64,000 nt of DNA from an uncultured Bacteroidales bacterium (GTDB lineage: Bacteria; Bacteroidota; Bacteroidia; Bacteroidales; F082): contig ONKA01000003.1 in assembly GCA_900318265.1 (NCBI GenBank), forward strand, positions 234,378 through 298,377, given 5' to 3'. Below are positions 14,605 through 58,615 of this stretch, piece by piece. The first letter of the stretch is position 1; every line of letters starts with the position of its first letter. The notes under the pieces are model-generated. The model was not told the DNA's origin. It made no database searches and worked only from the letters and a program-made list of their open reading frames with translations. Made by a program: the position numbers and the translations under genes.

Positions 14605-14606
14605 CA

Positions 14607-42655: not shown

Positions 42656-43231
42656 TCACCTCTTTTCGTAATTCTCTTTTTCCGCTGCAATAGAAATAGG
42701 AGTCTCCTGAACATCGTAGGGTACCACCTTCGGCTGGTGCAAGGCCAAGAAATATTCGTTGAGCAACAGTTCCACGCGGAGCATCGTCTCCTCAATGCGT
42801 TTGGGCGTCAGCTGGCACTCCCATACCACGATGACCTGCCAGCCGTTGTCGTGCAGCACTTGGTAGTTCTGCTGGTCGCGTTCCTGGTTTCTTTTGATTT
42901 TGTTCACCCAAAACTCCCTATTTGTCTGCGGAGTTTTACAACATTGGGAACTTTCTTCTCTAAACTCTAAATTGACTCCGTCGAATGCTTCGCATTTCTC
43001 AACACTAAACTCAACAAAATGTCCATGCCAGAAACACCCATTCACAAAAATCGCCGTCCGATACCGCCGCATGACAATATCCGGTTTGCCTGGCACGCTC
43101 TTCACGTTGAGGCGATAGCGGTAGCCGTGTCGCCACAGCCATTGCCGCACCTTCAGCTCAGGCTTGGTGCCTTTGCCGTGGATGCGCGACATCACGCGGT
43201 GGCGTTGTTCGGGTGTGAGACGGTCGGTCAT
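42656..43231 (-). CDS. vsr: Very short patch repair endonuclease, with repeat-derived insertion
   Basis: Nicks 5' of the T in T:G mismatches formed by deamination of 5-methylcytosine. The 191 residues show RHRVMSRIHGKGTKPELKVR, RLNVKSVPGKPDIVMRRYRT (catalytic Asp), IFVNGCFWHGH, and VIVVWECQLT; typical Vsr is about 140-155 residues. Between FWHGH and the conserved REFWVNKIKRNQERD there are about 20 extra residues (SVEKCEAFDGVNLEFREE), coded by the same repeat found in ileS. The insertion replaces the Cys of the usual HGHxC zinc site. Vsr proteins pair with C5-cytosine methylases; two such genes lie 8-10 kb away in the defence cluster, but it is not in that operon. Confidence 0.88.
   Translation of the reverse strand: MTDRLTPEQRHRVMSRIHGKGTKPELKVRQWLWRHGYRYRLNVKSVPGKPDIVMRRYRTAIFVNGCFWHGHFVEFSVEKCEAFDGVNLEFREESSQCCKTPQTNREFWVNKIKRNQERDQQNYQVLHDNGWQVIVVWECQLTPKRIEETMLRVELLLNEYFLALHQPKVVPYDVQETPISIAAEKENYEKR
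42961..43012 (-). repeat. GACTCCGTCGAAT repeat in frame in vsr
   Basis: ATTGACTCCGTCGAATGCTT then CGCATTTC, flanked by TAAACTCTAA and CTAAACTC words. On the minus strand it reads KCEAFDGVN; the ileS copy reads KCSAFDGVN in the same phase. Confidence 0.75.
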
Positions 43232-45071: not shown

Positions 45072-45090
45072 AAGATTTCTCTTTATGCTG

Positions 45091-45099: not shown

Positions 45100-45163
45100 G
45101 ATTATTCCATCCTTGACGCTCTAAATAAATGCAATAAAGCACGATAAAAGGCGTTATCTGTTT

Positions 45164-45750
45164 ATGAGACAATTCTTTACTTATCTGCTTCTGATAGTGC
45201 TTGGCCTGGTGTTTCTATCAGGTTGTCAAGCGCAAAAAGCCTCCATCCGCGGTCTTCAAGGCGAGATTGCCTACAAAGTTACCTTGCCCGATGGGTTTGA
45301 TCCAACAACCGACCAATGCCCGATGGTGATCCTGATGCACGGCATCTTCTCCAGCAAGGACTATATCCCTATGCCGCAGCTCGCAAGAGGGCTTGCCGAA
45401 GCCGGCATCGCCTCCATCCGCTTCGACTTCGGTGGACATGGCAAAAGCGAAGGAACCCGCCGGAATACATCCGCTGTTGGGGATTGTATAAGCTGGGGCG
45501 CGAATACCTCGTCACCACGCAGCAGCTCGACATCTATGGCACTGCGGCTGATTATCACGGCCCTGTGCTCCTCCTCCACGGCGATCGCGACGGCATCGTG
45601 CCGATGTGGTGCAGCGAGCGATACCTTGAGGCCTACGGCCCTCATGCCACCCTAAAAGTGGTGGAAGGCGAAAACCACACCATCACGCGCCGTCGCAAGC
45701 AGGTTGTTGGTGAGACGGTGGAGTTTTTTAGAGGGGTGTTTGGGAGGTGA
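45164..45750 (+). pseudogene. Alpha/beta hydrolase lipoprotein, core deleted
   Basis: A lipoprotein esterase-like alpha/beta hydrolase that has lost its middle. The N-terminal part (signal peptide with LSGC; MVILMHGIFSSKDYIPMPQL; SIRFDFGGHGKSEG) ends near 45460; the C-terminal part (NPPEYIRCWGLYKLGREYLV, LLLHGDRDGIVP with the acid Asp, VEGENHTI with the catalytic His) continues in a different frame. The nucleophile elbow GxSxG and about 100 residues between are absent, judged against the usual 300-residue family. The remaining open frame reads nonsense after SEGTRRNTSAV. It lies at the edge of the defence cluster and could mark the damage from an insertion or deletion there. Confidence 0.8.
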
Positions 45751-45814
45751 TGGTTATCGCCAGCGGCGGGAAGATAATGGCTGGGATGGCTTGGAGGCAG
45801 GACAATTTCTGTTT

Positions 45815-48040
45815 TTAGTTCGGTTTATCGAAAAGGAAGTCAAACGTTTGATAAGGCGTATTGTCACCAATTAAGCGAGCTAAATCCTCTGGTGAACGGG
45901 AGTGACCGGCTGAGGCTGCTCTTGGAAGCATATAACCAATTGGTTGCTTAAATCTGTAATAATTCCCTAGTTTAAATAGTAATCTTACAGGGTTCTCGTT
46001 ATCTGTCAGATTAGTCAATGTGATGGATTCAATCTTATATGCCCCAAGAAGAGGTTTGTTGTCAAATGGCGCGAGATATTTGATTCGGGAGAAATCCTGC
46101 ATCAAGTTGGGCTTGTATCCCGAAAGAAATTCTTCAGCTGTACCCTCCATCAAAGCTTCTAAATCATTGACCTTTTTGTCAATGGAGAATACGATCATCA
46201 ATTCTTCTTTCTTTTGTTGAGGACCCTTCATTCCACTAGTGTAGCCCATTTCCTTCAGTTTTTGTGTTGGGTCTTCTCCTAATTTATAGTCTTCTTTTTC
46301 AGTTATAAAGAAATACTTCTTTAGTTCAGATAACAATGCCTCGTTTTCTTGTCTTTCCTGCTCGTTTTCAGAGTTTTCCAAAGCCAACACAAACACCTCT
46401 TCATTGGCAAACGGGGTGAATACCTTGCCTAACAGGTTCTTCAAATTGTCGTCGATATAGCCTTTGGCGTAGGTGGATGGCTTGGGAGCAAAGGCATAGA
46501 ATTGGAACTTGGATGCCAACACCTCTTGGATTTTCTTTCTGAAAATGGTTCTAACGTGCGACTTCCATTGCGCCTTCTCCGATTCTTTGTTTCGCGCGTA
46601 CATTCTGACAACAAATAGGAAATTGATGTCATAATACATCAACAACAAGGTGTCGCGGTCGAAGAGGCGATTGTCGAATTGGGTGGAGATATAGGTCTCT
46701 TCACGGGGTTTGACATTCAAGTCGTTCCCTTCGGTATCAGTGCCACGGTCATATGTCGGTTGGTCGTCAACAAAAGCGGACAGGAAGAAATTGGGAATGA
46801 TGTCATATCCCTCGTTGGGCGAATCAGGGCGCAGCCTTATGTCTTTGAATCTTTCAACTGTCTCACTTTTCATCCGTCGCCCTTCTTCGTTGTCTTTCCA
46901 CAAGTCAATGTTCCATTGTATCACATTGCGGGCGTAGGTGTATTGCTTCGAAACGGAAGGCTTTCCAAGAGCCGTCGACATCTTGTAATACTTGGAATCG
47001 CCGATGTAGTACACTTCTCTGTTTTGGTGCGAGGTGAGTGCCAAGTCAGTGTACATGTGGTCCACTTGCTTGCCATCGTCTTGGTCGGCCAAACCGGGCG
47101 GTATTTTGTCATGAGAAGTGCCTATGAGTTCGTCTATCATCGCCTCAAAGATGATATTGTATTTCTTGGCAAGCAGATATTCCTTGTTTTCGGTGTTGAC
47201 AGCAAGCAGGTAGGTGTTGTCGAAAAATGCATAACAGAGTTCCCATAGCAGCACCGCTTTGTCGGAGAAATACTTGTATCGGATTTCTTTCAGTCTGGTC
47301 TTGCCATAGCCTTTGCGATAGGTCTCAAACTGCGACGGAGCGAGCAACTCATATTGCATATTGATGGGTGCACGGAATCCATACTCGCGGTTGACATAGT
47401 CAAGGATGGAGAAGAAGATGACGAACAGCTCCTCGTCGAAATTGATTTGCCGTTTGCGGTTGACGGGTTCCAGATAAACCGGAGTGCCGTTTTGGAGGAT
47501 GGCTTCTGATTGTGAGATGGTCCGCGTCCAGTTGATTTTGTTGTGGCCAGAGTGGATGTTTTTGACCGTGTATAGAAAGAAATCCTGGTTCTCTTGGTTG
47601 AATTGGATGAGGGACAGGATGATGTCGAGATAGGTGTTGGCTTGATGTCGCATCCCCTTCCCCGAACGCGGAAGCCGACGGTAATAGATGGCCTGTGAAT
47701 CGGGTTTATGCTGGTGGTAAACAGCAATAGTCCTATAAATCCATACGGCAAACTCGTAAAGGAACTTGCGGTATTCTTGTGTCAAGTGTTTCTGCTGCCC
47801 TTCAGGTGTGATGATTTCTTTTGGGTCGACAGTTGTATTGGGGCCAATCACCAATTGATCCTTGTCGTTAAGCAGAACCTTTGGAAGGATGAACACGCAA
47901 TCGGGTATGGCGGGCTCGTAGTAATAACCCACATAGCCCACACTGACTTTGTGGTCGATGTCTTGCAACTCACTGATACCGTGCAGGGCCACTTTGACAT
48001 CTTCGGCAGCATATTGGTGTTCCTCAAAAATGATATACAT
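45815..48040 (-). CDS. LlaJI/McrC-like restriction nuclease subunit
   Basis: 741 residues. Together with the McrB-like motor it should form the DNA-cutting part of an NTP-dependent restriction system. A beta-rich N-terminal domain (1-80) precedes a helical region (RKFLYEFAVWIYRTIAVYHQ) and a PD-(D/E)XK nuclease core: Asp 332 in HMYTDLALTS, then REVYYIGDSKYYK with Asp 348 and Lys 350, followed by SKQYTYARNVIQWN. The C-terminal 300 residues are an extension whose last part (FSRIKYLAPFDNKPLLGAYK ... RLLFKLGNYYRF) is beta-rich and may read DNA. I assign it to the LlaJI restriction family because of the motifs and because two C5-methylases and an McrB-like gene precede it; McrC proper is only about 350 residues. 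Start ATG overlaps the previous stop by one base (TAATG). Confidence 0.72.
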   Translation of the reverse strand: MYIIFEEHQYAAEDVKVALHGISELQDIDHKVSVGYVGYYYEPAIPDCVFILPKVLLNDKDQLVIGPNTTVDPKEIITPEGQQKHLTQEYRKFLYEFAVWIYRTIAVYHQHKPDSQAIYYRRLPRSGKGMRHQANTYLDIILSLIQFNQENQDFFLYTVKNIHSGHNKINWTRTISQSEAILQNGTPVYLEPVNRKRQINFDEELFVIFFSILDYVNREYGFRAPINMQYELLAPSQFETYRKGYGKTRLKEIRYKYFSDKAVLLWELCYAFFDNTYLLAVNTENKEYLLAKKYNIIFEAMIDELIGTSHDKIPPGLADQDDGKQVDHMYTDLALTSHQNREVYYIGDSKYYKMSTALGKPSVSKQYTYARNVIQWNIDLWKDNEEGRRMKSETVERFKDIRLRPDSPNEGYDIIPNFFLSAFVDDQPTYDRGTDTEGNDLNVKPREETYISTQFDNRLFDRDTLLLMYYDINFLFVVRMYARNKESEKAQWKSHVRTIFRKKIQEVLASKFQFYAFAPKPSTYAKGYIDDNLKNLLGKVFTPFANEEVFVLALENSENEQERQENEALLSELKKYFFITEKEDYKLGEDPTQKLKEMGYTSGMKGPQQKKEELMIVFSIDKKVNDLEALMEGTAEEFLSGYKPNLMQDFSRIKYLAPFDNKPLLGAYKIESITLTNLTDNENPVRLLFKLGNYYRFKQPIGYMLPRAASAGHSRSPEDLARLIGDNTPYQTFDFLFDKPN

Positions 48041-49203
48041 TAGTCCTTGTCGTTTTTGATTCTGTCGCCCAAATTTTGTTCTATTTCTTCGATGGTAGGG
48101 ATGGTGCCTTCCACTTTCTCCGGATAGAGTTTGGCCAGTTCGTACTCCGAAATGCCTAAAGGCTGATTGCTGGCTTCCAGTGCATATTGTGCCACAAGGC
48201 TATCTTTCTCCTTGCAAATCAAGATGCCGATTGTGGGATTGTCACGCCCTTCTTTCTTCAATATGTGGTTGCATGCCACGACATACCCTCCGAGTTGTCC
48301 GGCATCGGCAAACTCAAACTTGCCGATTTTCACCTCAATCACTACATAGCACGACAAGTTCAGATTGTAGAAAAGTAGGTCGATAAAATTCTCTGTGTCA
48401 CCAATCTGCAAGCGGTATTCCTTGCCTACATAAGCGAAGCCTGTGCCTAATTCTACCAAAAACTGTGTGATATTGTTGAGCAGTTTGTCTTTCAACAAGC
48501 GTTCATTATATCTGCCAGTAATGCCAGTAAAGGCGAAGTTGTATGGGTCTTTGGTCAATTCTTGCGCCAGGTCGCCTGTGGGTTTGGGCAAGGTGTGCTC
48601 GAAGTTTGTCAAAGCCTTACCTTGCCGTTCGTATAGGTCGGTGCCCATAAAATTGAGCAGCATATTTCGACTCCATCCGTTCTGCACGGTCTGATGGACG
48701 AAGAACAAGGCTTTTTTCATGTCGCCTTTCGCCTTGTCGATGATTGCCATGTGATGACCCCATGGGACATGGCACAAATCGGAGATGACATTTTGGGCAA
48801 AAGCCGAATCAAATTCTTCAGCAACTTGCTGAGGATTTGATAAGCTTTGGGCAAGTAAAGGCTTGTCTTCAGATTCTTCAGCAACTTGCTGAAGATTTCC
48901 AATTGCTTCGGAATAAAGGATATAACATCGTTTAGCATATCTAATGTTCGACTCGGAAAGACCGGAAGCATCAGGCAAAGCATGTTTTAGATCACGGCTT
49001 AGCGATGCATAGAATGCACTACCATATTTGTTTTCGGCATCAAGCATCACGATGTCGCGACCCAATTCAAGATAGAATAAGATCATCTCTTCATTCACTT
49101 TTACCGCCGCTTTGATTTGGCTGCTGCGGTAACGTGAACTCAGTTCGTTGATCCACCGGGAATAGTCTTTGTCCAATATCGAGATAGATTGTCCCATACC
49201 CAT
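48040..49203 (-). CDS. DUF1016/YhcG PDDEXK nuclease domain protein
   Basis: About 387 residues of the YhcG family: an N-terminal helical DUF1016 domain (AAVKVNEEMILFYLELGRDI; SESNIRYAKRCYILYSEAIG; VPWGHHMAIIDKAKGDMKKA) and a C-terminal PD-(D/E)XK domain (DTENFIDLLFYNLNLSCYVV then IEVKIGKFEFADAGQLGGYV). YhcG proteins occur in restriction and other defence islands; their role is unsettled. The middle has a duplicated NLQQVAEE / NPQQVAEEF stretch, in DNA a TTCAGCAACTTGCTGA palindrome present twice (48825, 48882). I take ATG 49203 as start, 8 bases after the mcrB-like stop; an in-frame ATG at 49245 would overlap it by 34 bases. Confidence 0.87.
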   Translation of the reverse strand: MGMGQSISILDKDYSRWINELSSRYRSSQIKAAVKVNEEMILFYLELGRDIVMLDAENKYGSAFYASLSRDLKHALPDASGLSESNIRYAKRCYILYSEAIGNLQQVAEESEDKPLLAQSLSNPQQVAEEFDSAFAQNVISDLCHVPWGHHMAIIDKAKGDMKKALFFVHQTVQNGWSRNMLLNFMGTDLYERQGKALTNFEHTLPKPTGDLAQELTKDPYNFAFTGITGRYNERLLKDKLLNNITQFLVELGTGFAYVGKEYRLQIGDTENFIDLLFYNLNLSCYVVIEVKIGKFEFADAGQLGGYVVACNHILKKEGRDNPTIGILICKEKDSLVAQYALEASNQPLGISEYELAKLYPEKVEGTIPTIEEIEQNLGDRIKNDKD

Positions 49204-49211
49204 CGCGTTAT

Positions 49212-51215
49212 TTATGCCTTGTCGTTTTTGGTATCGGTTCCCCACCGCATCACGTTGCCGATGAACGCTTCCGCAACCTCTTTGATCACATAGCCATCGC
49301 CGTCATAGAAAGCGGGGAAGGTGAGTTGTTGTTTCTGTTCTTCTTTATCTTTATAGCTAAACAAGTCGCCCTGCTGTTCGTCAAGGGCGTAGGTCTTGAA
49401 GATGTCGTTCCAGAGGTAGAAGCAGACCTTCGAAACGAAGGTATCGTATGAAATGATGTCGTTTTTCGCCTTGGCGAAGAAATAACCCAACTGCTTGTCG
49501 GCCGAATTGGTCATTTTGTCGATGATGGCGTTGATTTGTTGTAGGAACGCCCACCAGTCGTGGTCGCCTTCAATCTTGAAATCGAACGGAATCTTTTCTC
49601 CGTTTTCGTTCAGTTTGAAGGAGCCGTCCTCGTTTTTCTTGTAGGGTCTGACAATCTTCATATATTTCCATTCCCAACGGCGCTTGAATGCCGAGTCGAT
49701 GGGGAAGAGGCTTTGGTCGCTTGTGTTCATGGTGGCCCAGATGTAGAGGTTGGCGGGCAGCTTCATGATTTTGCCAGTCTTGATTTGTTCATCCAAATCA
49801 TTGAAAGCGGCAAAATACTCCTTCAGATAGTTTTCCAAGGCCTTGTCGGGCTTAATTTCATACTCTGAAACGCCGTCATCGCCTCTATCCAAGAGTTGGA
49901 AGATGTCGCCGAAGATTTGGGCGCAGTTGCCACGGTTGATTTCTTCAATCACAAGAATGACGGGCTTGTCCGTGGTCCATGCCTTGGTATAGGCTTGCAC
50001 AAAGGCTTGCGGCGTGTAGTCGTAAACGATTTCGTCTTTGGTGGCTTGGTTGTCTTTGTCGGCCATCACGGGTTTCTCGTTGCCTTCCACCACGTAGGTT
50101 TGCGGCACGGACTTCATGATGGGTTTGTAGCAACCCACAAAAGTGGAGTAATCGCTATCGGGATGGAAGGTCGTGCGGATGACCTGCTCCTTCTCGTCAA
50201 TGCCATTTTCTCGGATGATTTCTTTGATTCTGTGTGATTTGCCCGTGCCTGGGGCACCGTAGAAGATTTGCTGGAGAGGGTATCCTTTCAAATCATTATT
50301 GGCTTTTTTGGAAACAAGGTATAATTGATGCTCTCCATTGGGGCCTGTTTTGTATAGGTAATTAGTCCCGTAGCAACATTGAATCATCTTGATAAAATCA
50401 TCAAGTGTCAGTTGGTAATCTCCATTTGCATTCCATTGAGTGCTTAGGAATACATTTCGTTCTCCCAGTGTAAATTGGTCTTCAAACCATCTCGTATGAC
50501 TAAGATTTCTTGCCTTTACATCATCTAAGGTGGATTCTAAAAACATCCCTGTTAATTTAAAGGTGCTTCTTTTGCTTACCTTGATTGGTGAAGTAGAGCT
50601 TGCATAAGGAACAATAGCATCTAATCCATCTATTTTGTTAACATATTGAATTACAGACAAGACGAATGAAGTAAGATTCTTTTCGCTAAAAATGAGTTCG
50701 GTTACATTTTTTTGTGATGAAACATCATCCTCGGACGAATCAAGTTTTAATCTAATAGTAACAGAATTATCATCTTTGTAAAACTCTAAAACGGATCTTT
50801 CTTCGAGCAAGAAATGACGTATATTAAACTTGCTGCTCTTGTCTTCTAAAGCATTTAGATAAATACGTCCGTCATTCCGATAAATTAGATTTACAGAATA
50901 TGTTTTTTTCTCATTTGGCCCAAAAAATGAGCAAATAGCTTGAAAGTCTTTAATAAACACATTTGGGTCAGAGCTAACTACCGTTGAAGAAGAGGAAGTC
51001 GTAATGTATAGAGGTGAACAGTTGACGATTGCCCCAAGTGCTTTTAAATAATCTGCTCTATAAAGTGTAAATGAGATAGGTGTTTTTGAACCTTTCGTTA
51101 ATGTTGGTGCAATCAGTTGCAATATCTCATTTGAAAGATTAAGACTTGTTTCTCCAGAGTTCTTTGGAGAAAGCTTGTAGTGTGCGTCTTGGGAGTGAAT
51201 GCGTTTGGTAATCAT
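49212..51215 (-). CDS. McrB-like AAA+ restriction motor (LlaJI R1-like)
   Basis: 667-residue AAA+ protein of the McrB group, a GTP-type motor that translocates DNA for its nuclease partner. Walker A is FYGAPGTGKSHRI (residues 320-327), Walker B ILVIEEINRGN (420-429), and the sensor YIWATMNTSDQSLFPIDSAF with KRRWEW (490-516) is McrB-specific. The first 310 residues are the DNA-recognition part and match nothing I know. The base composition changes abruptly at the domain border (about 50280): the AAA part is near 50% G+C, the N-terminal part near 30%. It lies one base after the second C5-methylase gene. Confidence 0.88.
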   Translation of the reverse strand: MITKRIHSQDAHYKLSPKNSGETSLNLSNEILQLIAPTLTKGSKTPISFTLYRADYLKALGAIVNCSPLYITTSSSSTVVSSDPNVFIKDFQAICSFFGPNEKKTYSVNLIYRNDGRIYLNALEDKSSKFNIRHFLLEERSVLEFYKDDNSVTIRLKLDSSEDDVSSQKNVTELIFSEKNLTSFVLSVIQYVNKIDGLDAIVPYASSTSPIKVSKRSTFKLTGMFLESTLDDVKARNLSHTRWFEDQFTLGERNVFLSTQWNANGDYQLTLDDFIKMIQCCYGTNYLYKTGPNGEHQLYLVSKKANNDLKGYPLQQIFYGAPGTGKSHRIKEIIRENGIDEKEQVIRTTFHPDSDYSTFVGCYKPIMKSVPQTYVVEGNEKPVMADKDNQATKDEIVYDYTPQAFVQAYTKAWTTDKPVILVIEEINRGNCAQIFGDIFQLLDRGDDGVSEYEIKPDKALENYLKEYFAAFNDLDEQIKTGKIMKLPANLYIWATMNTSDQSLFPIDSAFKRRWEWKYMKIVRPYKKNEDGSFKLNENGEKIPFDFKIEGDHDWWAFLQQINAIIDKMTNSADKQLGYFFAKAKNDIISYDTFVSKVCFYLWNDIFKTYALDEQQGDLFSYKDKEEQKQQLTFPAFYDGDGYVIKEVAEAFIGNVMRWGTDTKNDKA

Positions 51216-51216
51216 A

Positions 51217-52281
51217 TTATGAAAGTATTTTTTTTGTAATCAAATAATACATCACTGCATATATAGTATTCACGCTAACGGCATTGCCAGCTTGTTTATA
51301 CATTGCTCCATCTGGGACACCTGCTTCTTCAGCCTTTGTCGCAAAGTCAGGCCCAAATCCTTGAATCATGAAAGCTTCTTTAGGTGTCAGTTTTCGAATC
51401 GCTATCTTAGCCAATTCCTCTTTGCTCATTCTCTCTGCTGGTTTATCTTTTCCCTTTGATTGAATAAACAAATCACTATAATAGTTATCTTGACAAGCGC
51501 GATGCATTTTGTGCATGGTGGCAGTTAATGGCCGAGCAATAATCTGGTCAATTTCCGATTTTGATTTAAAACCAGAACTGCCATCACTTAATATTGTCGG
51601 TTTTATTTTTTCTGAAAGGTAGTATTTCTTATCAACATCTCTGTCAAGCAAATCAATGGTCGAATTGTAGAAATGCAGCGAACATTTGCTTCTATCCATT
51701 TGACTAAAAGAGGCTTTAACAAGATCCGACGTGAAATCAAAACGGCCTAAGTACTTTCTTCTTGCAAAAATAATAACCCTATTGCGTTTTTGTGGTAGGC
51801 CAAAATCATTCGAGTTGAAAACATCCATTTTTACAATGTACCCAGCATTCTCCAATTCGCTTTTTATAACAGCAATTGTGTTTCCCTTATCATGATTCTT
51901 TAAGTTCTTGACATTCTCCAAGAGAACATAGCGTGGATGTCTACTATTTACCATATCCATGATTCGGAAAAACATTTGTCCTCTTTCTTCCTCAAATCCT
52001 TCTTGGCTTCCCATCATACTAAACGTTTGACACGGAAACCCTCCTGAAAGAATCTCATATTTAGGGAATTGTTTCATCCATTTTTTGTTCTTCACAAAAT
52101 CTACGATATCTCCCATCGGGAATTCGCCATCAGTATCATAATTTGCTTTGTAGGTGCTAATTGCCGTTTTGTCAATCTCGGAAAAAGCGATTGTATCAAT
52201 AGGAATACTAAGGTCATGAGAAATTAAATCCATGGCCCTTCTAAAACCACCTATACCAGCAAAAAGTTCTACGTGATTCAT
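51217..52281 (-). CDS. DNA C5-cytosine methyltransferase (second of pair)
   Basis: 354 residues. Motif I VELFAGIGGFRRAM, motif IV GGFPCQTFSMMGSQ (catalytic Cys 84), motif VI YVLLENVKNLKNHD, motif VIII NDFGLPQKRNRVIIF, motif IX region KLTPKEAFMIQGF and motif X YKQAGNAVSVNTIYAVM are all present, so it should be active. It overlaps the preceding methylase gene by 4 bases (ATGA) and probably methylates the opposite strand of an asymmetric site, as the two methylases of LlaJI do. AT-rich compared with the chromosome. Confidence 0.93.
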   Translation of the reverse strand: MNHVELFAGIGGFRRAMDLISHDLSIPIDTIAFSEIDKTAISTYKANYDTDGEFPMGDIVDFVKNKKWMKQFPKYEILSGGFPCQTFSMMGSQEGFEEERGQMFFRIMDMVNSRHPRYVLLENVKNLKNHDKGNTIAVIKSELENAGYIVKMDVFNSNDFGLPQKRNRVIIFARRKYLGRFDFTSDLVKASFSQMDRSKCSLHFYNSTIDLLDRDVDKKYYLSEKIKPTILSDGSSGFKSKSEIDQIIARPLTATMHKMHRACQDNYYSDLFIQSKGKDKPAERMSKEELAKIAIRKLTPKEAFMIQGFGPDFATKAEEAGVPDGAMYKQAGNAVSVNTIYAVMYYLITKKILS

Positions 52282-53408
52282 ACAAATTTCATTATGCCGT
52301 CTCCTATGGCCTTTGCAAGTTTAACCGGTACCGCATTTCCAACTTGGGCGTACCACATATTCTGCGCTCCTGTAAAAACGAAGTCATCAGGGAAGGTTTG
52401 TATACGAGCAGCCTCTCTTGGGCTCAGCCCTCTTGCTTCCCATGGATGAATATACATGTTGCAATCAAACTTCATGTGAGAAGTAATGGTCTTGCAAATT
52501 TGTGTTTCGTCTAATTTAAAATATTTGTCCTTAAAGATGTCGTTACGTCTCTTATAGGGCATAATATCGGCAATAGATTCATGAAGAGAATTTGCTCCTT
52601 GAGGAAGTCGCCTAAAAATCTCGATGTCTCTTTCGTTATTATACCTGTTTTTATGGTTGTATAGCTTTGTTATGACCCTATTACCATTTATGAAATAATA
52701 GAATTTGGTCTTCGGATATTCAAAATCGCATTCAGTAAAACCGGATTGAGCGTCCTCAACACCACTTTGCCCTTTGTCTTTCTTTGCTTCTAAATGAGGG
52801 AGTCCATACAATGCGTCTCGCAAAACAAAAGGTTTGCGTTTGTGGCGGTATATTTCTTCAAAGATTTCTATGGGCTGAACACCCATGCGATTGCCAATCA
52901 TTATAAAACGCTCCCTGTTTTGAGGAACACCATAATCTTGGGCTTTCAACACATCGTAATCAAATAAATACTCTTCCCCTAGATATTCTTTGAAGTTTTG
53001 TATGATTTCATCCTTCTTATTCATCATACCCTTCACATTCTCCATAATGAAGAATTTAGGACGAACTTTGCTTAAAAAGATCAAATACTGCTTGTACAGA
53101 CTATTTCGCGGATCATCAAGAATCCTTTGTCTATTGGCCATAGAGAATCCTTGACAAGGAGGCCCACCACATACTAGGGTAATATTTTTGAGCATTTCTT
53201 CATATTCATCCAGATGATCATTAAGCACAGCGATGTCTCCAATATAATAGTGTTCATCGGAAAGCTCATGGTTGAACTTATATGTATTAGCGAACTGCTC
53301 TACAATTTCGTTGACAAACCAAGGCGTAAACCCGGCTTGCTCCAATCCTAAGCTAAGGCCACCACAGCCTGCGAACAAGTCGATGAATGTATATTTCTTT
53401 TTTGGCAT
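52278..53408 (-). CDS. DNA C5-cytosine methyltransferase (first of pair)
   Basis: 376 residues with a complete set of motifs: I FIDLFAGCGGLSLGLEQAGF, IV CGGPPCQGFSMANRQ (Cys 85), VI FFIMENVKGM, VIII QDYGVPQNRERFIMIG, IX LSPREAARIQTFPDDF and X WYAQVGNAVPVKLAKAIGDG. The target-recognition region lies between about 180 and 310 and differs from that of its partner. Its own promoter-like box lies in the 76-base gap after the receiver gene, so module B may be transcribed separately from module A. Confidence 0.94.
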   Translation of the reverse strand: MPKKKYTFIDLFAGCGGLSLGLEQAGFTPWFVNEIVEQFANTYKFNHELSDEHYYIGDIAVLNDHLDEYEEMLKNITLVCGGPPCQGFSMANRQRILDDPRNSLYKQYLIFLSKVRPKFFIMENVKGMMNKKDEIIQNFKEYLGEEYLFDYDVLKAQDYGVPQNRERFIMIGNRMGVQPIEIFEEIYRHKRKPFVLRDALYGLPHLEAKKDKGQSGVEDAQSGFTECDFEYPKTKFYYFINGNRVITKLYNHKNRYNNERDIEIFRRLPQGANSLHESIADIMPYKRRNDIFKDKYFKLDETQICKTITSHMKFDCNMYIHPWEARGLSPREAARIQTFPDDFVFTGAQNMWYAQVGNAVPVKLAKAIGDGIMKFV

Positions 53409-53435
53409 ATTATATCGCTCAAATATTATTAAACT

Positions 53436-53444
53436 GCAAAACTA
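53436..53444 (-). promoter_or_regulatory. Possible internal promoter before the C5-methylase pair
   Basis: TAGTTTTGC on the minus strand, 27 bases before the methylase ATG, in the only sizeable gap of the eight-gene cluster. Confidence 0.45.
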
Positions 53445-53484
53445 CACATTTTTTATTCAAAACTTGTGGCATAGAATAGAAGGG

Positions 53485-54645
53485 TTAGTCTTTCAACGCT
53501 CTTTCTGGTATAGATGGTAATGCTTGACGTTGGAGATATGTCATCAATCTAGATTTAAGCCTGATACTATATGGAGGTAATAAACGCCCAATGCGTTTAT
53601 CCTTAATATCTTGCCAAAATACACAGCGTAATTTTTTGAACTCAAAAACGATGATTTTTCCATCATCAATGAAAGGAACAACTGACGAATCGATAGGTTC
53701 TAAAAACGCACCTTTAAAAAACTTATAACGAGAGTTTTTCTTTTTTAGTTCTGACTCTTTTAATACTTTCCCTTTTACAAGATATAATTCAGGATTAATG
53801 TTGCGTACTAAATCACAGTCCGGCCTGAAATTAAAATAATAATTCTTTCCTTCTTTATATATATCTCCTAAAACGGGATAAGGAAGCAAGTAATCGTCCT
53901 TAATATACTTTTCCCTTTCTAATAACTTCCGCAGGTCTGTTTTAGAAATAGTGTTCTTTGTTTTGTGAACAATACTTTTGTCTAGAATCAAAGGAGCACA
54001 AGTAGATAATAAATTGTTAAAAAGCAGATTTCCTATCTCGGCGTTTTCGGCACCAACATCATCATAATATGTGTTCATCAAAATAGAAACCCAATTAGAT
54101 GAAATTCCATTTAAATCATGGAACAGTTTTGAAGTGGCTTTATGGGTGTTATATTCCCATCGTTTCATAACGTATATAGAAGGGACTTTCTTAACCCATT
54201 TCGCAATTGTCGAGAACAGAATCGTCCCGCTTTTTATCTCTGATTTACTTTTTACAAAAATGTTGTTGCTTTTGTTTGCGTCAAACAACCCTTTAGCTGC
54301 TAATGTTAATTCGATATCGTGCGGGTCTTCATTTGTAAATATGAAAATCGGAATAAAACATAAACTATTTATTTCCTCAATAAATTGTATATTCTCATCT
54401 ATAAGCGCAGGGGGAATAATAGGCAAATTGTGTAAATTCCAATCCAAAACCAAAAAACTAAGATTTCTGAAATTCTGAATTACTTTAGGGTCGGGAATAG
54501 AAGTATATGCTAATAGTGGAATGTTTTTATTAAGCATATATTTGTATATTTTATTAATGCCGTCTCCACTTGCTTTTTTACCAATTTCTTCATCAATAAT
54601 TACCCCAATCCCATTAAATAGAGAAACAATGTCTTTACTATTCAT
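53485..54645 (-). CDS. Divergent receiver-domain protein, partner of the dual-ATPase kinase
   Basis: 386 residues with a receiver-like N-terminal domain (1-135). The acidic pocket is GVIIDEEIG (Asp 18, Glu 19-20), the acceptor Asp 68 is at the end of FLVLDWNL, the conserved Thr 104 is in IFIFTNE and the Lys 132 in NIFVKSK: the full set needed for phosphorylation, at the right spacing. The C-terminal 250 residues are of unknown fold; a PDCDLVRNINPELYLVKGK segment and FFKGAFLEPIDSSVVPFIDD recall other uncharacterised defence-island proteins. There is no recognisable DNA-binding domain, so the output may be an effector rather than transcription. It starts 3 bases after the kinase gene. Confidence 0.7.
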   Translation of the reverse strand: MNSKDIVSLFNGIGVIIDEEIGKKASGDGINKIYKYMLNKNIPLLAYTSIPDPKVIQNFRNLSFLVLDWNLHNLPIIPPALIDENIQFIEEINSLCFIPIFIFTNEDPHDIELTLAAKGLFDANKSNNIFVKSKSEIKSGTILFSTIAKWVKKVPSIYVMKRWEYNTHKATSKLFHDLNGISSNWVSILMNTYYDDVGAENAEIGNLLFNNLLSTCAPLILDKSIVHKTKNTISKTDLRKLLEREKYIKDDYLLPYPVLGDIYKEGKNYYFNFRPDCDLVRNINPELYLVKGKVLKESELKKKNSRYKFFKGAFLEPIDSSVVPFIDDGKIIVFEFKKLRCVFWQDIKDKRIGRLLPPYSIRLKSRLMTYLQRQALPSIPERALKD

Positions 54646-54648
54646 TTC

Positions 54649-56898
54649 CTATTCCTCCTCATTAACATTATTAAAATCAACTTTAAAATTTGCTCCTGGC
54701 AATACTAAAGGTTCATTCATTAAAACAATACTAAAGCCCATTCTATATAAGAGTTGTCGAGCAATATACAATCCCAACCCGCGGCCTTCATCCTTTCCAG
54801 AATAAAAAGCCTCAAAAATATAAGGCTTATCCTCATCCGCAACTCCTGGTCCGTTGTCTGAAAACACCAATTCTTTTTTGTCACCATCAAGTATTATGTG
54901 TATTTTTTTATCCATACGACTAATCGATGACAACCAATAGATTGCATTATCAAACAGGTTTATCAATAATTGCAGAATAACGGCATCTGTACATTTTATG
55001 GCAAGGGGTGCACCTCTTTCCTCTATTACCAAATCAATTTTGGCTCTAATTAATGTGTTTTTATATATTTGTGCGACTTTGTCTAATATTGGGATAATCC
55101 GTATCGTTCTTTTTCGCTGCTTAGATGATTTGAATAAAAGTTGAATATTCCTCATTTCATCTTGGACAAAAAGGAGAATACTCTTTATCTCGGTTAATTC
55201 CTCCGATATTACAGATTTCTCTAGAATTCCTCTTTTCACAGCATCCGATAAATCCACAAGGTGATTTATGCCTTGAGATAACATCATCATCAAATCATGT
55301 GAAGCAGTTTCTACCGATAGGCCAACAGCAGCAAGTTCTTCTGTAACATTTATTCGATTATTATATATTTCCTTCTCTTTGATATAAGCAGAATGCAAAT
55401 CTTTATATAATTCTATAGCTTCATTATTATCTTTTACAACATCATACAGCCTTCGAAATTTATTCTCTGTAATATGAAGTTCAGCATCCTTTTGTTCTTT
55501 AATAAGTTTAATTCTCTGCTTATATTGCTCGTATGGATGTTGCCGAATATATAATAAAAACGAATGGATGAGCATTATGAAATCCCTAGTGGCTCTGCCT
55601 TCTTCGATAAGGCCCTCTCTGTTTGTTTTATCTTTCAGTTTGGGATTGCCTTTTTTGGTAATATCCACAAATCCAACCACTTGATCGTTACTAAGATACC
55701 CGCCTGCTTTTCCTGTACCTCTTTTTTTATCTGTTTCTAACCAATCGTTATCGGCATCTCCGTAAGGTGAAACACGAATCTTATCTCGATACAAATAAAT
55801 CCTATGTTCTTTGACAATATCTTTGTCTGCTTTATCCAAATAGTAAACACTCTCTTTATCAGCAGCGAAGTCAAAAACAAAAAAATTAAAAGAGAAGCTT
55901 CCGCATTCAGGCTCTCTTAACATTGGGTTTTCAAAAATATCTTTATTAGCCATAAACCGCTCTTTAAACGGGGTCAATGCTGTTAATAAAGGGTCCTTCA
56001 AAGATAACACATACGGATTTCCATTTAATACATACTCAAATTGAAGTCGATTATGATTGTATTTGCCCTTTGTTATTCTTAAAACAGAGTACTCTTTTAA
56101 TAAAGTAGCCAACTTATCCACTTTGGGATCAATGTATGGCATATCCTCCCCGTTCATATTGAATCCAATACTAAATGGATACTTTATGGTACGTTTAAAG
56201 ATTTTGTCGAATACTGACTCTAACTTTTGGGACTCCTTATTGACTTTGTCAATCTTATCTTTATCCCAGGTTCCTTTTAAATCAGAAATTTCTATTATTG
56301 TTCCATGTGCATTGTCCGTAAACTCTTTATGATTTACTATGACGTTTCTTTCTATAAAATGAATCGGTGCGTTTTCTTGTAAATCAAAACTCAATTGATC
56401 CAAATATAATTCTTTTTCCTTTCCGTTTTCTTTAAGAAAATCATCGTCATATTTAGAAAAATCATAAGTTAGAGTATATTCATTGTTTTCACCAATTGGT
56501 CTCGTAGTAATAACAATGTTTCTGCCTAATTTAAGCACGGCAAATCTGCCAATACCTTTTTCCCCTTGAATAGTTCTTCCTTTTTTTGTAATTATAGAAC
56601 TGTTTTCTTGTAGTTTTTTATTGGGCGTGGCTGGATTCATCCAACTCTTTTCAATAACATCTCGCCCCATACCCAAACCATTATCCTCAATGATTATTTT
56701 TGAATTTTTTGTAAGTTCAAAGTCACCGGTTTTTTTGTTTGGCACAAAACCTATAAAACTTACTTTTACCCAATCGGCATCTGCATCATAACCGTTTTTT
56801 ATAAGTTCAGCCAACGCAATCTGTTCATCCCTAATTAATTGTTCGCCAAGCATTGTGAGCAAACGAGCATACGGCCTTATTTTTAAACTGGTTCCCAT
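54649..56898 (-). CDS. Dual GHKL ATPase: MORC/Hsp90-like N-domain plus histidine kinase core
   Basis: 749 residues. Residues 1-220 are a MORC/Hsp90-type ATPase: N-box ALAELIKNGYDADADWVKV, G1 IIIEDNGLGMGRD and G2 GEKGIGRFAVLKLG. Residues 240-440 look like the S5-type domain that follows in MORC and MutL relatives (RDKIRVSPYGDADNDWLETD; DKTNREGLIEEG). A coiled coil (455-520) leads to a dimerisation/phospho-acceptor helix with VETASHDLMMML, His 534, and then a complete kinase ATPase: N-box LLINLFDNAIYWL, G1 FSDNGPGVADED, F and G2 boxes YIFEAFYSGKDEGRGLGLYI. So it could both sense through one ATPase and phosphorylate through the other; the receiver partner is the next gene. No membrane segment. 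MORC/MutL-type ATPases in restriction operons have been described (Iyer and colleagues); this two-headed form linked to a receiver is less familiar to me. Confidence 0.82.
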   Translation of the reverse strand: MGTSLKIRPYARLLTMLGEQLIRDEQIALAELIKNGYDADADWVKVSFIGFVPNKKTGDFELTKNSKIIIEDNGLGMGRDVIEKSWMNPATPNKKLQENSSIITKKGRTIQGEKGIGRFAVLKLGRNIVITTRPIGENNEYTLTYDFSKYDDDFLKENGKEKELYLDQLSFDLQENAPIHFIERNVIVNHKEFTDNAHGTIIEISDLKGTWDKDKIDKVNKESQKLESVFDKIFKRTIKYPFSIGFNMNGEDMPYIDPKVDKLATLLKEYSVLRITKGKYNHNRLQFEYVLNGNPYVLSLKDPLLTALTPFKERFMANKDIFENPMLREPECGSFSFNFFVFDFAADKESVYYLDKADKDIVKEHRIYLYRDKIRVSPYGDADNDWLETDKKRGTGKAGGYLSNDQVVGFVDITKKGNPKLKDKTNREGLIEEGRATRDFIMLIHSFLLYIRQHPYEQYKQRIKLIKEQKDAELHITENKFRRLYDVVKDNNEAIELYKDLHSAYIKEKEIYNNRINVTEELAAVGLSVETASHDLMMMLSQGINHLVDLSDAVKRGILEKSVISEELTEIKSILLFVQDEMRNIQLLFKSSKQRKRTIRIIPILDKVAQIYKNTLIRAKIDLVIEERGAPLAIKCTDAVILQLLINLFDNAIYWLSSISRMDKKIHIILDGDKKELVFSDNGPGVADEDKPYIFEAFYSGKDEGRGLGLYIARQLLYRMGFSIVLMNEPLVLPGANFKVDFNNVNEEE

Positions 56899-56904
56899 AA
56901 TATC

Positions 56905-58275
56905 CTATTTTTGCATGATTATTATGAATTCATTCGGATAAACCTTTTTGCAATTTGGATTATCCTGTTTTGTAAACTTTCCTGTTTTACTATCTCGGAG
57001 AGTCGGCATCAATTTGTGAGGGATGCTCCTTTTGATTACATCTTTTTTTCGTAAACCTGCGTTTTTTAGCAATTCATAGAACACCTCAGCAGATTTGATC
57101 TGGACATCTTTAATTTTGGTGTTTCCAATTACAATGCATGCGTGTCCGTTAGGAACGAGAATGCGTGCCATTTCATAGGCGACTTCACTCATGTCATTAA
57201 AATACTGAGCAACATCACGGGCGATATGTTTGCTTTTTTCTGCCAATGCATTTACGATTTCTTGTGCCAACAGGCTCCCTTTCACTTCTAAAGAGGTATT
57301 ACCTGAATAAGAAGTTCCTATGAATTGCTTTCTAAACTCTGACATGTTGGAAACATATTCCATCCAATAAGCAGTCAACTGGTGAATGTCGGCATACTCG
57401 TATGAAGTCACATAAGGCGGAGAAGTGATAATCATATCCACTGTTTGGGATTCAATTGAAGTATGACGGGCGTCTTCCAAACGAATATCAAACGGCACAT
57501 TCAAATAGCCATTTCTATTAAGATAATCATAATACTCAGCGTTGCTTTTGATCATTTTTTGACAATGACGCTTGAACTCGTCAAACGGATTCGGAATCAA
57601 CTTATTAGGATCAACTTGCGGTTTTGTGCTTGATTGAAGCCAACGGGAACAATTCTTCAAAATATGAGAGATACAAACATAAAAGAATTCCTTAATGTTT
57701 TCTTCAATATCCAAATTGTGAACCGAGTCATACAAAAATGCGATTTTGGCTTTTTCCGACGGGAAAAACCAATAGTCAAGTCGTTCGTGTTTTTGAATGT
57801 TTAAATAGTTTGCCTCGTTATATCCATCAAAAGATGTAACCAAATCTTCGTATGCTTGTTGAAGTTGTTCCGGGGCTATAGGTGTTGTTTTGACTTTCGT
57901 AATTAGTCTTGCCACGGGATTAATATCCGTCCCAATGGATATTTTACCATGAGCTTTGGCTTCCACGAGAGTTGTGCCGCATCCGGCAAACAAATCTGCA
58001 ATGACATTGCAATTAGCAGGTGAATGATCCTCGATAATCTTTTTAACTACATTGGGCAAAAATTTCGCGGGATAGCGATGATAACCATGTGTCCATTGCT
58101 CAGTTGAGCGGAAATCTTCAAACGCCCATTCGGGATCAACTTCTGTTGATGTATCAAAATCCACAAAGCAAAGGGGGCTCTTGTTTGTTTTTCTCGGGCC
58201 ACAAGCCACCTCGCCTCCTTCGTGGAAGAAGGATATTGTTTTGAAATCCAGAATATTACAAGTTTTCATCGCCAA
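56905..58275 (-). CDS. SAM-dependent DNA methylase, N4-cytosine/N6-adenine type
   Basis: 456 residues. The FxGxG SAM motif VIADLFAGCGTTLVEAKAHG (96-101) precedes the catalytic motif DMIITSPPYVTSYEYAD (SPPY 285-288); TSPPY is most often seen in N4-cytosine methylases. HGYHRYPAKFLPNVVKKI (64-81) is the HxYPAKF motif of this subgroup. About 185 residues between the two motifs could form the target-recognition part. First gene of the cluster; a TATATTTGC box lies 17 bases upstream and the dual-ATPase gene begins 6 bases after its stop. It may mark self DNA for a function carried by the ATPase and receiver proteins. Confidence 0.87.
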   Translation of the reverse strand: MAMKTCNILDFKTISFFHEGGEVACGPRKTNKSPLCFVDFDTSTEVDPEWAFEDFRSTEQWTHGYHRYPAKFLPNVVKKIIEDHSPANCNVIADLFAGCGTTLVEAKAHGKISIGTDINPVARLITKVKTTPIAPEQLQQAYEDLVTSFDGYNEANYLNIQKHERLDYWFFPSEKAKIAFLYDSVHNLDIEENIKEFFYVCISHILKNCSRWLQSSTKPQVDPNKLIPNPFDEFKRHCQKMIKSNAEYYDYLNRNGYLNVPFDIRLEDARHTSIESQTVDMIITSPPYVTSYEYADIHQLTAYWMEYVSNMSEFRKQFIGTSYSGNTSLEVKGSLLAQEIVNALAEKSKHIARDVAQYFNDMSEVAYEMARILVPNGHACIVIGNTKIKDVQIKSAEVFYELLKNAGLRKKDVIKRSIPHKLMPTLRDSKTGKFTKQDNPNCKKVYPNEFIIIMQK

Positions 58276-58291
58276 TATACCATATTAATCT

Positions 58292-58300
58292 GCAAATATA
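58292..58300 (-). promoter_or_regulatory. Promoter -7 box of the defence cluster
   Basis: TATATTTGC on the minus strand, 17 bases before the first methylase ATG. Confidence 0.55.
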
Positions 58301-58329
58301 CGAATTTTTCGGTAATCGAAGCAAACAAT

Positions 58330-58615
58330 TTCTCAGTTTTCTGATGCAGCTTTTGGCGCTATGCACCAAGTCGCTGACGAAAGTATAGGCGCCGAGGTGA
58401 TATACCATGTCGTCGATGCAGTATGTTCCAAAATGGAACTAACTGAATTCCCTTTCCGTTTAGGAGATAGCGGGTCAAGCCCGCTATGACGGCAAGGGGC
58501 AGGGCTGATGTCACCTGGGGGAGGGTACGGAATGCTTCAAGTTTCGCAACCGGTCACAAATTGTGACCAGTTCATCTGTCTCATCTTGAGACAATTGGAA
58601 TCGAAACAGAATTTT
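58330..58615 (-). pseudogene. Remnant of an ORF6N-domain protein
   Basis: On the minus strand 58612-58512 reads FRFQLSQDETDELVTICDRL then RNLKHSVPSPR and a stop, closely like the ORF6N (phage KilA-N-linked) segment FxFQLSxxE..ELVxxCDRFxxLKHS. Further down, 58430-58400 reads CIDDMVYHLGA, like the ORF6N C-terminal VYHxGASLKD. The middle is gone and replaced by a hairpin repeat. This 368-base gap holds nothing else except promoters. The remnant suggests earlier mobile or phage-related DNA at the cluster border. Confidence 0.5.
58467..58487. repeat. Hairpin ATAGCGGGTC/AAGCCCGCTAT
   Basis: ATAGCGGGTCAAGCCCGCTAT, 9-bp stem. Lies within the ORF6N remnant and is related to the larger palindrome at 4508. 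Confidence 0.7.

What the first reader, a model, noticed from the sequence alone, without database searches (positions are those of the whole stretch)
45815..58300. Eight-gene defence cluster: LlaJI-type restriction joined to a methylase/phosphorelay module
Eight genes on one strand with gaps of at most 8 bases except one of 76: SPPY methylase, dual GHKL ATPase, receiver protein, two C5-cytosine methylases, McrB-like motor, DUF1016 nuclease, LlaJI/McrC-like nuclease. The second half matches the four-gene LlaJI system (two C5-methylases plus two restriction subunits, acting on an asymmetric site). The first half, a separate methylase with a kinase-like ATPase and a receiver, is not part of LlaJI as described. 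Together they form three self-marking methylases and at least two nucleases, plausibly a layered defence in which one module senses and the other cuts, or two systems stacked side by side.
Basis: partly seen in the sequence, partly recalled or inferred. Interest (0 to 1): 0.9.

Follow-up and report, generated by a model that had tools for sequence, protein, structure and literature searches.

The report
Restriction system with phosphorelay front end
A gut-type bacterium carries one long defence operon in which a DNA-marking enzyme with a kinase-like sensor and its receiver partner is joined to a LlaJI-like DNA-cutting machine, and relatives swap the two halves like building blocks, which suggests that the halves work together, though nothing has been tested in the laboratory.

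Summary
The eight genes are real, intact, on one strand and nearly gapless. The first half (N4/N6-type methylase, dual GHKL ATPase, response regulator) is a free-standing module: the same order occurs in 50 sampled loci over many phyla, with every ATP-site, His and Asp phosphorelay residue conserved. The second half is a LlaJI-like cassette (two C5 methylases, McrB-type motor, PD-D/ExK nuclease) with a DUF1016 gene inserted. They are unlikely to be a chance stack. In the window's genus 12 of 22 LlaJI-type loci with enough upstream sequence carry a methylase+GHKL front on the same strand, of four kinds; in the 24 genomes with a GHKL match, 0 of 34 HsdR loci share a contig with it. One relative repeats seven of the eight gene types. 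Exchange points lie at the regulator/C5 junction and inside McrB. AlphaFold plus Foldseek give the regulator a MazF/PemK-like output domain; a sequence-profile test found nothing. Close prior art: HEF_HK/Response_reg_2 R-M pairs (2021) and one sentence on NxD McrBC with two-component genes (2024). Best reading: one composite, exchangeable restriction system in which a phosphorelay module senses DNA and switches effectors. Coupling and chemistry are inferred. New variant of a known kind.

The parts
56905..58275 (-). N4/N6-type DNA methylase (P0001), FAGCG and SPPY motifs; first gene of the front module; TTG start uncertain
   Evidence: Pfam N6_N4_Mtase 2.1e-19; SPPY present in 49 of 50 triads, the other a gap
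54649..56898 (-). Dual GHKL ATPase (P0002): N-terminal HATPase_c_3 (paraMORC/BbrUII-like), His box with H534-D535, C-terminal HATPase_c
   Evidence: Pfam, NCBIfam BbrUII/HgiDII 8.7e-13, far below that model's cut-off; E31, N35, D72, H534, N647, D681, G705 in 50 of 50 triads
53485..54645 (-). Response regulator (P0003): receiver domain (D18, D68, K134) plus C-terminal MazF/PemK-like barrel (about residues 255-386)
   Evidence: AlphaFold2 pLDDT 92.9 whole and 92.2 domain alone; Foldseek; conservation
53381..53485 (-). Junction between front and back modules (76-base gap plus the first codons of the C5 methylase); end of the 91.9% DNA match to the G732 back module
   Evidence: blastn, sequence
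52278..53408 (-). C5-cytosine methylase 1 (P0004)
   Evidence: Pfam DNA_methylase 6e-69
51217..52281 (-). C5-cytosine methylase 2 (P0005)
   Evidence: Pfam DNA_methylase 6.7e-71; 100% identical protein in G732
49212..51215 (-). McrB-type motor, R1.LlaJI-like (P0006): Walker A GAPGTGKS at 320, NxxD motif in ATMNTSDQ
50267..50281 (-). Recurrent exchange point inside McrB at about residue 312, between the variable N-terminus and the motor domain; GC steps from about 0.35 to 0.49
   Evidence: DNA or protein homology to L249, L258, L239 and (protein) L247 stops at about this point
48040..49245 (-). DUF1016/YhcG PD-(D/E)xK protein (P0007); insertion in the cassette; GTG start uncertain
   Evidence: Pfam YhcG_C 4e-56, DUF1016_N 2.5e-27; PADLOC PDC-S02 1.4e-146
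45815..48040 (-). LlaJI-like nuclease, R2.LlaJI-like (P0008), D327 ... GDSKYY (D348, K350)
   Evidence: Pfam RE_LlaJI 7.8e-5, below cut-off; D327, D348, K350 in 11 of 11 sequences, the window's included
42656..43231 (-). Vsr mismatch endonuclease (P0009); in several relatives the next gene after LlaJI; here separated by other genes and lying in the collinear flank
   Evidence: Pfam Vsr 7.9e-31

Best explanation
One composite restriction system made of two exchangeable modules in one operon. The front module marks its own site with an N4/N6 methylase. Its dual ATPase uses an N-terminal GHKL (paraMORC-like) domain to sense DNA that lacks the mark or is otherwise foreign. This drives the C-terminal histidine-kinase half to phosphorylate itself on H534 and pass the phosphate to D68 of the response regulator, whose MazF/PemK-like output domain then acts on nucleic acid or a partner, or switches on the back module. 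The back module is a LlaJI-like restriction cassette: two C5 methylases protect the two strands of one site, the McrB-type subunit recognises the unprotected site through its N-terminus and moves DNA, and the LlaJI-like nuclease (perhaps with DUF1016) cuts. Shown: gene content, motif integrity, recurrence, gene packing and exchange points. Inferred: co-transcription, the phosphorelay, what is sensed, and that the front controls or backs up the nuclease.
For: Front module in fixed order in 50 loci, both gaps between -30 and +10 in 41 of 50, and all ATP-site, His and Asp/Lys phosphorelay residues in 50 of 50; kinase and regulator distances correlate at r = 0.92 over 45 loci (0 of 2000 permutations as high), the methylase less (0.39, 0.34). 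Genus: GHKL front upstream and on the same strand in 12 of 22 LlaJI-type loci; in the 24 genomes with a GHKL match 11 of 14 LlaJI loci lie within 10 kb, all downstream and same strand, against 0 of 34 HsdR loci on the same contig (p = 1.6e-8 treating loci as independent). 15 of those 24 GHKL loci are followed by an McrB-type motor. Four kinds of front sit on LlaJI. G730 has seven of eight gene types; regulator TGA and C5 ATG are 2 bases apart. G732 has the same back module (91.9% DNA) with another front; G754 (L051/L242) the same kind of front at the collinear site with another McrB-type back. L054 and L055 share methylase (95%) and kinase (98.9%) but their regulators are only 38.5% identical and their back modules differ, as if regulator and back module were exchanged together. 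In L090/L099 the front is nested in a type III operon, -4 and 0/-1 bases.
Against: 10 of 22 LlaJI-type loci of the genus lack a GHKL front, and in the order-wide sample 7 of 7 other genomes with a P0008 homologue showed none in the stretch fetched, also with the more sensitive profiles (L159 is only a 6.6-kb contig). Most front modules outside this genus have no labelled restriction motor or nuclease beside them (McrB-type in 5 of 50 with the window, type III in 2 of 50). G732's front has no kinase half and no receiver (HATPase_c_3 + Hypoth_Ymh), so a phosphorelay is not needed by the LlaJI half. L054/L055 show that even kinase and regulator can be parted. The four non-LlaJI McrB motors behind GHKL genes in the genus are all of the NxD type, an association already in print. 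The MazF-like fold has no sequence-profile support. No experiment exists.
Confidence: 0.6

Rival explanations
1. Two complete, independent defence systems that share a chromosomal defence hotspot; the front module restricts or aborts by itself (response-regulator output domain as effector) and the LlaJI-like cassette restricts by itself.
For: Each half occurs without the other. The site is a hotspot: G687 has 5.3 kb of other content between the same flanks. Front modules are found complete on a conjugative plasmid and on four viral contigs.
Against: Ordinary island clustering should also bring GHKL modules next to the commoner HsdR genes (0 of 34 on one contig) and in either order or orientation; order and strand are the same in 11 of 11. 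Stop and start 2 bases apart in G730. Partners differ in sequence but keep the same slot.
Confidence: 0.25
2. The GHKL/response-regulator pair is a two-component regulator that sets transcription or activity of the methylases and nucleases (timing or dose control of R-M), not a DNA sensor with an effector.
For: This is close to the proposal of PMC8011034 (parts 1-4 of 7 and the Discussion read). P0003 has a receiver and an output domain. Regulator and back module differ together between L054 and L055.
Against: The output domain resembles MazF/PemK, not a helix-turn-helix, and a paraMORC-type N-terminus fits DNA handling better than ligand sensing (PMC2292703, passages seen). In L240/L241/L256 the receiver is a separate short protein followed by another small protein.
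Confidence: 0.15
3. The GHKL N-terminus acts as a DNA clamp or loop-former for the nuclease, as proposed for MORC and paraMORC ATPases; the kinase half and receiver only tune it.
For: The N-terminal GHKL matches the BbrUII/HgiDII restriction-enzyme model weakly. In G732 a GHKL protein without kinase half stands in the same slot.
Against: The phosphorelay residues are invariant in 50 of 50 front modules and kinase and regulator distances correlate at r = 0.92, which argues that they matter.
Confidence: 0.15

Closest known systems
HEF_HK / Response_reg_2 two-component-like pairs of R-M loci (PF19191, PF19192; Bellieny-Rabelo 2021, PMC8011034)
   Same: HATPase_c_3 + His box + HATPase_c protein beside a receiver protein and methylases or Vsr; canonical members stand upstream of LlaJI-type cassettes in G742 and G707 of the same genus.
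   Different: P0002 and P0003 miss both Pfam models; the adjoining methylase is N4/N6-type, not C5; in the parts read the paper reports no known domain besides Response_reg_2 in the regulator and no LlaJI/McrB link.
LlaJI restriction-modification system (PMC1459862)
   Same: Two C5 methylases, McrB-like R1, PD-D/ExK R2 in that order.
   Different: An extra DUF1016 gene and the front module; nuclease just under the Pfam RE_LlaJI cut-off; specificity unknown.
McrBC systems with NxD GTPase, methyltransferase and two-component genes (one sentence in the CoCoNuTs paper, PMC11090510, section 7)
   Same: McrB-type motor, methylases and two-component genes in one operon; L051/L242, L054, L245, L276 and L280 (NxD; DUF2357-PDDEXK_7-type nuclease) fit this description.
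   Different: The window's motor is NxxD and its nuclease LlaJI-like, not DUF2357.
MORC/paraMORC GHKL ATPases of R-M systems (PMC2292703)
   Same: N-terminal GHKL beside methylases, Vsr and restriction motors.
   Different: Kinase half plus receiver added; the 2008 text has no occurrence of 'receiver' or 'response regulator'.
Detocs defensive two-component system (glossary passage in PMC11249213; gene details recalled)
   Same: Three-gene defence system built on two-component logic with a receiver-linked effector (the receiver link is recalled).
   Different: Best-described effector is a PNP ATP-cleaving domain, not MazF-like; no methylase as recalled.
MazF/PemK toxins
   Same: Predicted fold of the regulator's output domain.
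   Different: No sequence-profile similarity; the domain has its own conserved residues G260, D261, C277, P358.

Membership tests
LlaJI | Two 5mC methylase genes followed by two restriction genes | tested here: met
   a DUF1016 gene lies between the two restriction genes
LlaJI | R1 with McrB-like GTPase motifs in its C-terminal half and a unique N-terminus | tested here: met
   GAPGTGKS at 320, NTSD at 496; PDB McrB sequences matched
LlaJI | R2 with PD...D/ExK centre | tested here: met
   D327, D348, K350 invariant in 11 sequences; catalysis not shown
LlaJI | Passes Pfam RE_LlaJI cut-off | tested here: not met
   22.5 bits against 23.6; hence 'LlaJI-like'
LlaJI | Recognises 5'-GACGC/5'-GCGTC | not testable with these tools
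   needs methylome or digestion data
HEF_HK/Response_reg_2 pairs | HATPase_c_3 + HATPase_c with His followed by Asp/Glu | tested here: met
   H534 50/50, D535 49/50 with one E
HEF_HK/Response_reg_2 pairs | Pfam HEF_HK hit | tested here: not met
   no hit at E 0.01
HEF_HK/Response_reg_2 pairs | Pfam Response_reg_2 hit | tested here: not met
   none on P0003; weak hits in 3 of the 50 sequences of alignment A5, P0003 not one of them, best 5.1e-4
HEF_HK/Response_reg_2 pairs | Receiver residues (acidic residues, Asp, Thr/Ser, Lys) | tested here: met
   D18 50/50, D68 50/50, T/S104 50/50, K134 50/50; second acidic position 19 is D or E in 43 and N in 7
HEF_HK/Response_reg_2 pairs | Phosphotransfer between the two proteins | not testable with these tools
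   in the sections read, the 2021 paper's case is computational apart from earlier expression data
MazF/PemK | Fold | tested here: met
   all 50 listed PDB matches of the domain model (of 535 with E up to 10) are MazF/PemK-family structures, prob 1.00, TM 0.46-0.58 by query and up to 0.74 by target; best E only 2e-3; a prediction, not a solved structure
MazF/PemK | Sequence-profile similarity | tested here: not met
   hhalign probability 0.1%, lower than at least 10 of 100 shuffled-column controls (only 10 MazF sequences)
MazF/PemK | Catalytic residues and RNase activity | not tested
NxD McrBC with two-component genes | NxD motif in McrB | tested here: not met
   ATMNTSDQ = NxxD; L051/L242, L054, L245, L276, L280 are NxD
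Detocs | PNP effector | tested here: not met
   no PNP family listed for any of the eight proteins (E up to 0.01)

The most novel reading that the evidence does not exclude
A restriction system with a built-in suicide switch: a methylation-aware paraMORC kinase relays foreign-DNA detection by phosphotransfer to a response regulator whose output domain is a divergent MazF/PemK-fold effector, in the same operon as a LlaJI-like nuclease, so that clean restriction and phosphorelay-triggered toxicity are two layers of one response. The same MazF-fold regulator would then occur in dozens of stand-alone methylase-kinase-regulator modules across phyla.
Probability: 0.3. Interest if true: 0.88.

Novelty: new variant of a known kind. 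Interest (0 to 1): 0.64.

Why it matters
R-M systems are usually drawn as constant mark-and-cut machines. Here a histidine kinase and receiver with fully conserved phosphorelay residues sit directly upstream of restriction motors, repeatedly and in several kinds, which would make restriction a signalled response. It turns an old speculation about R-M-linked two-component proteins into a short list of point-mutant tests, gives the regulator a concrete output domain to assay, and shows two exchange points (front/back, and the McrB N-terminus with its methylases) by which such systems may change trigger and specificity.

Tried and rejected
Disfavoured: chance stacking as the main explanation (genus test). 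Rejected: simple membership of P0002/P0003 in the published Pfam domains. MazF homology by sequence was tested and not supported, so only a fold resemblance is claimed. I recognised no nuclease motif in P0003 by eye. PDB sequence search with the receiver-family profile: 0 hits up to E 10. Literature: searches. In the lists returned I found no paper on a LlaJI cassette with a GHKL/receiver front or on a MazF-fold response-regulator output; the library lacks most subscription journals and bioRxiv-only preprints, most searches set a minimum number of terms, and most listed papers were seen only as listings. The DefensePredictor paper (PMC13092281) names HATPase and REC in a figure legend; only the matched passages were seen. 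Promoter and terminator scans of the operon were at chance level. A possible CHAT/caspase-like reading of small proteins after some receivers rests on my reading of motifs and got no Pfam support.

Limits of the counts: genomes are mostly MAGs, and contig ends hide neighbours. With P0002 itself as query only 8 of 99 genomes of the genus match; the 24 of 99 use the eight-row profile A1. Of 30 LlaJI-type loci in the genus (the pieces on G700:C116 counted once), 29 were examined (G700:C116 was not fetched) and 7 of those had under 5 kb upstream and were left out of the 22. HsdR matches were compared with GHKL contigs by hand from the tables, and the numbers were copied by hand. Loci in one genus are not independent; the four kinds of front are the better count of joinings. 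The 10 MazF sequences were picked by a simple rule from 30 fetched PF02452 loci. In one search the set called C5-type still held some SPPY-type rows, so its profile comparisons are not used as evidence.
Full report
Observation. The eight genes exist as described, on the minus strand at 45815-58275, all open, with 6, 3, 76, -4, 1, -34 and -1 bases between neighbours. The window lies in an incomplete assembly (G000, contig C18, 89% complete) whose nearest named relatives are Bacteroidota. P0001 is an N4/N6-type methylase. P0002 carries HATPase_c_3 and HATPase_c. P0003 has no significant Pfam hit. P0004 and P0005 are C5 methylases. P0006 is an McrB-type motor, P0007 a DUF1016/YhcG nuclease, and P0008 a LlaJI-like nuclease just under its Pfam cut-off.

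The front half is a module of its own. They come from Bacteroidota, Pseudomonadota, Acidobacteriota, Planctomycetota, Verrucomicrobiota, Actinomycetota and others, from a conjugative plasmid of Allorhizobium and from four viral contigs. In 19 of 50 the next ORF lies on the other strand (some of these ORFs are short and may be spurious) and in 5 no further ORF was held.

It is built as a phosphorelay. In all 50 triads both GHKL ATP sites, the box histidine H534, the receiver aspartates D18 and D68 and the lysine K134 are invariant; D535 is D in 49 and E in 1. Kinase and regulator distances correlate at r = 0.92 over 45 loci, methylase and kinase at 0.39, methylase and regulator at 0.34 (0 of 2000 permutations as high in each case): kinase and regulator mostly stay together while the methylase is swapped more. 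There is a clear exception: L054 and L055 have methylases 95% and kinases 98.9% identical, but regulators only 38.5% identical. P0002's N-terminus resembles BbrUII/HgiDII restriction enzymes weakly.

The regulator's output domain. AlphaFold2 on 48 sequences gives P0003 a receiver plus a C-terminal barrel at mean pLDDT 92.9. Foldseek with the whole model finds receivers and MazF/PemK toxins among other weak hits. With the domain alone (pLDDT 92.2) all 50 listed PDB matches, of 535 with E up to 10, are MazF/PemK-family structures, probability 1.00, TM-score 0.46-0.58 by query and up to 0.74 by target, but best E only 2e-3. A sequence-profile comparison with 10 MazF proteins from the same order found nothing (0.1%, lower than at least 10 of 100 shuffled-column controls). 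Residues conserved in the domain are G260, D261, C277 and P358 (48 of 48 aligned, two triads gapped). I claim a MazF/PemK-like fold, not MazF activity.

The back half is LlaJI-like by order (two C5 methylases, McrB-like R1, PD-D/ExK R2; compare PMC1459862, passages seen) and by motifs, with a DUF1016 gene inserted. In the window's order, 8 of 295 genomes have a P0008 homologue, the window's among them; in the 7 others no GHKL gene was found in the stretch fetched, also with the profiles used for the genus. Among the 29 loci, DUF1016 lies directly before LlaJI only in the window, L246, L247, L269, L249 and L258, all with P0008 at 81% identity or more, so it looks like a lineage-specific addition.

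Are the halves linked? The genus gives the test. P0008 homologues occur in 27 of 99 genomes; GHKL matches (profile A1, E 1e-30) in 24 of 99 (with P0002 alone 8 of 99); both in 14 (Fisher p = 3e-4). In those 24 genomes 11 of 14 LlaJI loci lie within 10 kb of the GHKL gene, always downstream on the same strand; the other three lie on other contigs. Of 34 HsdR loci in the same genomes, none shares a contig with a GHKL locus (p = 1.6e-8 with loci treated as independent). Reading the loci themselves, 12 of 22 LlaJI-type loci with at least 5 kb upstream carry methylase > GHKL upstream on the same strand: SPPY type (window, G730), canonical HEF_HK + Response_reg_2 (G742, G707), C5 methylase + dual GHKL with other small proteins, several of them receivers (G705, G688, G775, G763, G747, G741, G724), and C5 methylase + GHKL-Hypoth_Ymh without kinase or receiver (G732). 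Of the 24 GHKL genomes, 15 have an McrB-type motor downstream: 11 LlaJI-type and 4 others (L242, L245, L276, L280), all four with the NxD motif. The other 9 do not, or the contig ends.

Exchange. G730 (L239) repeats methylase, GHKL, regulator, C5, C5, McrB and LlaJI without DUF1016. Protein identities are 70, 59 and 38% for the front and 72% for LlaJI; its C5 methylases are different ones (43 and 32% to P0004, no match to P0005 at 1e-10) and its McrB matches only from residue 313. Its regulator stop TGA is followed after two bases by a C5 ATG. G732 (L246) shares the whole back module at 91.9% DNA identity (w45755-53381), ending at the regulator/C5 junction, and carries another front. G754 (L051, L242) has collinear flanks and a front of the same kind (kinase 60% identical), but an NxD McrB and a DUF2357-PDDEXK_7 nuclease behind it. 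In L249, L258 and L239 the DNA match to McrB, and in L247 the protein match, stops at about residue 309-313 (w50267-50281), where GC steps from about 0.35 to 0.49: the variable N-terminus, taken by analogy with R1.LlaJI as the recognition part, seems to travel with its methylases. Outside the genus, L054 and L055 match at 95% over 4.1 kb of DNA up to the start of the regulator gene; beyond it regulator and back module differ: C5 + NxD McrB + DUF2357-PDDEXK_7 against a D12 methylase, a HARE-HTH protein and an N6/N4 methylase. Regulator and back module thus look exchanged together, which fits a regulator matched to its back module. L090 and L099 have the triad inside a type III operon, -4 bases after Mod and 0 or -1 before Res. 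Over the 50 triads, genes labelled McrB, McrC, LlaJI or Res lie downstream on the same strand in 7 (window, L051, L054, L090, L091, L092, L099; a weak 24-bit Res hit also in L069) and upstream in none.

Mechanism. The pattern (fixed slot and order, different partners, several kinds of front) is best explained by a functional link: the front module supplies a DNA-triggered signal or a second effector to a restriction machine. The phosphorelay chemistry, the trigger and the target of the MazF-like domain are inferred. Against obligatory coupling: 10 of 22 LlaJI-type loci lack a GHKL gene, one front has no kinase, and most fronts elsewhere stand without a labelled nuclease.

Prior art. PMC8011034 (parts 1-4 of 7 and the Discussion read; [quoted passage not shown] PMC11090510 (section 7 and matched passages read) states in one sentence that NxD McrB GTPases with methyltransferases frequently have two-component genes in the operon, and announces a further paper; the NxD loci above fall under it. 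PMC2292703 (passages) gives the paraMORC context. What I did not find in print: the SPPY-methylase triad as a family outside those Pfam models, the MazF-like output domain, the link to LlaJI-type NxxD cassettes, and the exchange points.

Verdict. Real, intact, recurrent and modular; a new variant of the R-M-linked two-component systems. The novel reading (restriction with a phosphorelay-triggered MazF-fold effector) is open and directly testable.

Noticed in passing
L241:9804-10454 and L247:7157-7960: Small proteins after the receiver in C5-type front modules of the same genus contain His-Gly and Cys motifs that recall CHAT/caspase-like proteases; motif reading only, no Pfam hit on the L241 protein, the L247 protein not scanned.
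   Followed up: partly
L090:6854-16050 and L099: The methylase-GHKL-regulator triad is nested between type III Mod and Res genes with an overlap of 4 bases on one side and 0 or -1 bases on the other.
   Followed up: partly
L054 and L055: Near-identical methylase and kinase genes (95% over 4.1 kb of DNA) but regulators only 38.5% identical and quite different R-M sets behind: regulator and back module look exchanged together.
   Followed up: yes
L209 (G687) 10070-15364 against window 45075-58387: Same flanks, other content including a C5 methylase: the cluster sits in a defence hotspot.
   Followed up: partly
window 42656-43231: Vsr gene in the collinear flank; in several relatives (L239, L241, L251, L262, L264) Vsr is the next gene after LlaJI.
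   Followed up: partly
L047, L065, L075, L076, L080, L098, L135: SPPY-type loci, most of them named Pseudomonadota, carry a second SPPY-type methylase next to the first (divergent in most, same strand in L065), often with a short ORF between.
   Followed up: no
window 45164-45750: Two overlapping reading frames that look like an alpha/beta-hydrolase gene by eye suggest a frameshifted gene at the left edge of the insert.
   Followed up: no
L131, L132, L133, L135: Complete triads on viral contigs and, in L047, on a conjugative plasmid: the module is mobile.
   Followed up: partly
L030:3436-13646: In another genome of the class a C5-C5-x-McrB-LlaJI set is followed, not preceded, by a GHKL gene and a receiver-like gene, without SPPY methylase.
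   Followed up: partly
L246 (G732) DUF1016: Within a back module whose LlaJI, C5 and McrB proteins are 92-100% identical to the window's, DUF1016 is only 76% identical, so it changes faster or was replaced.
   Followed up: no
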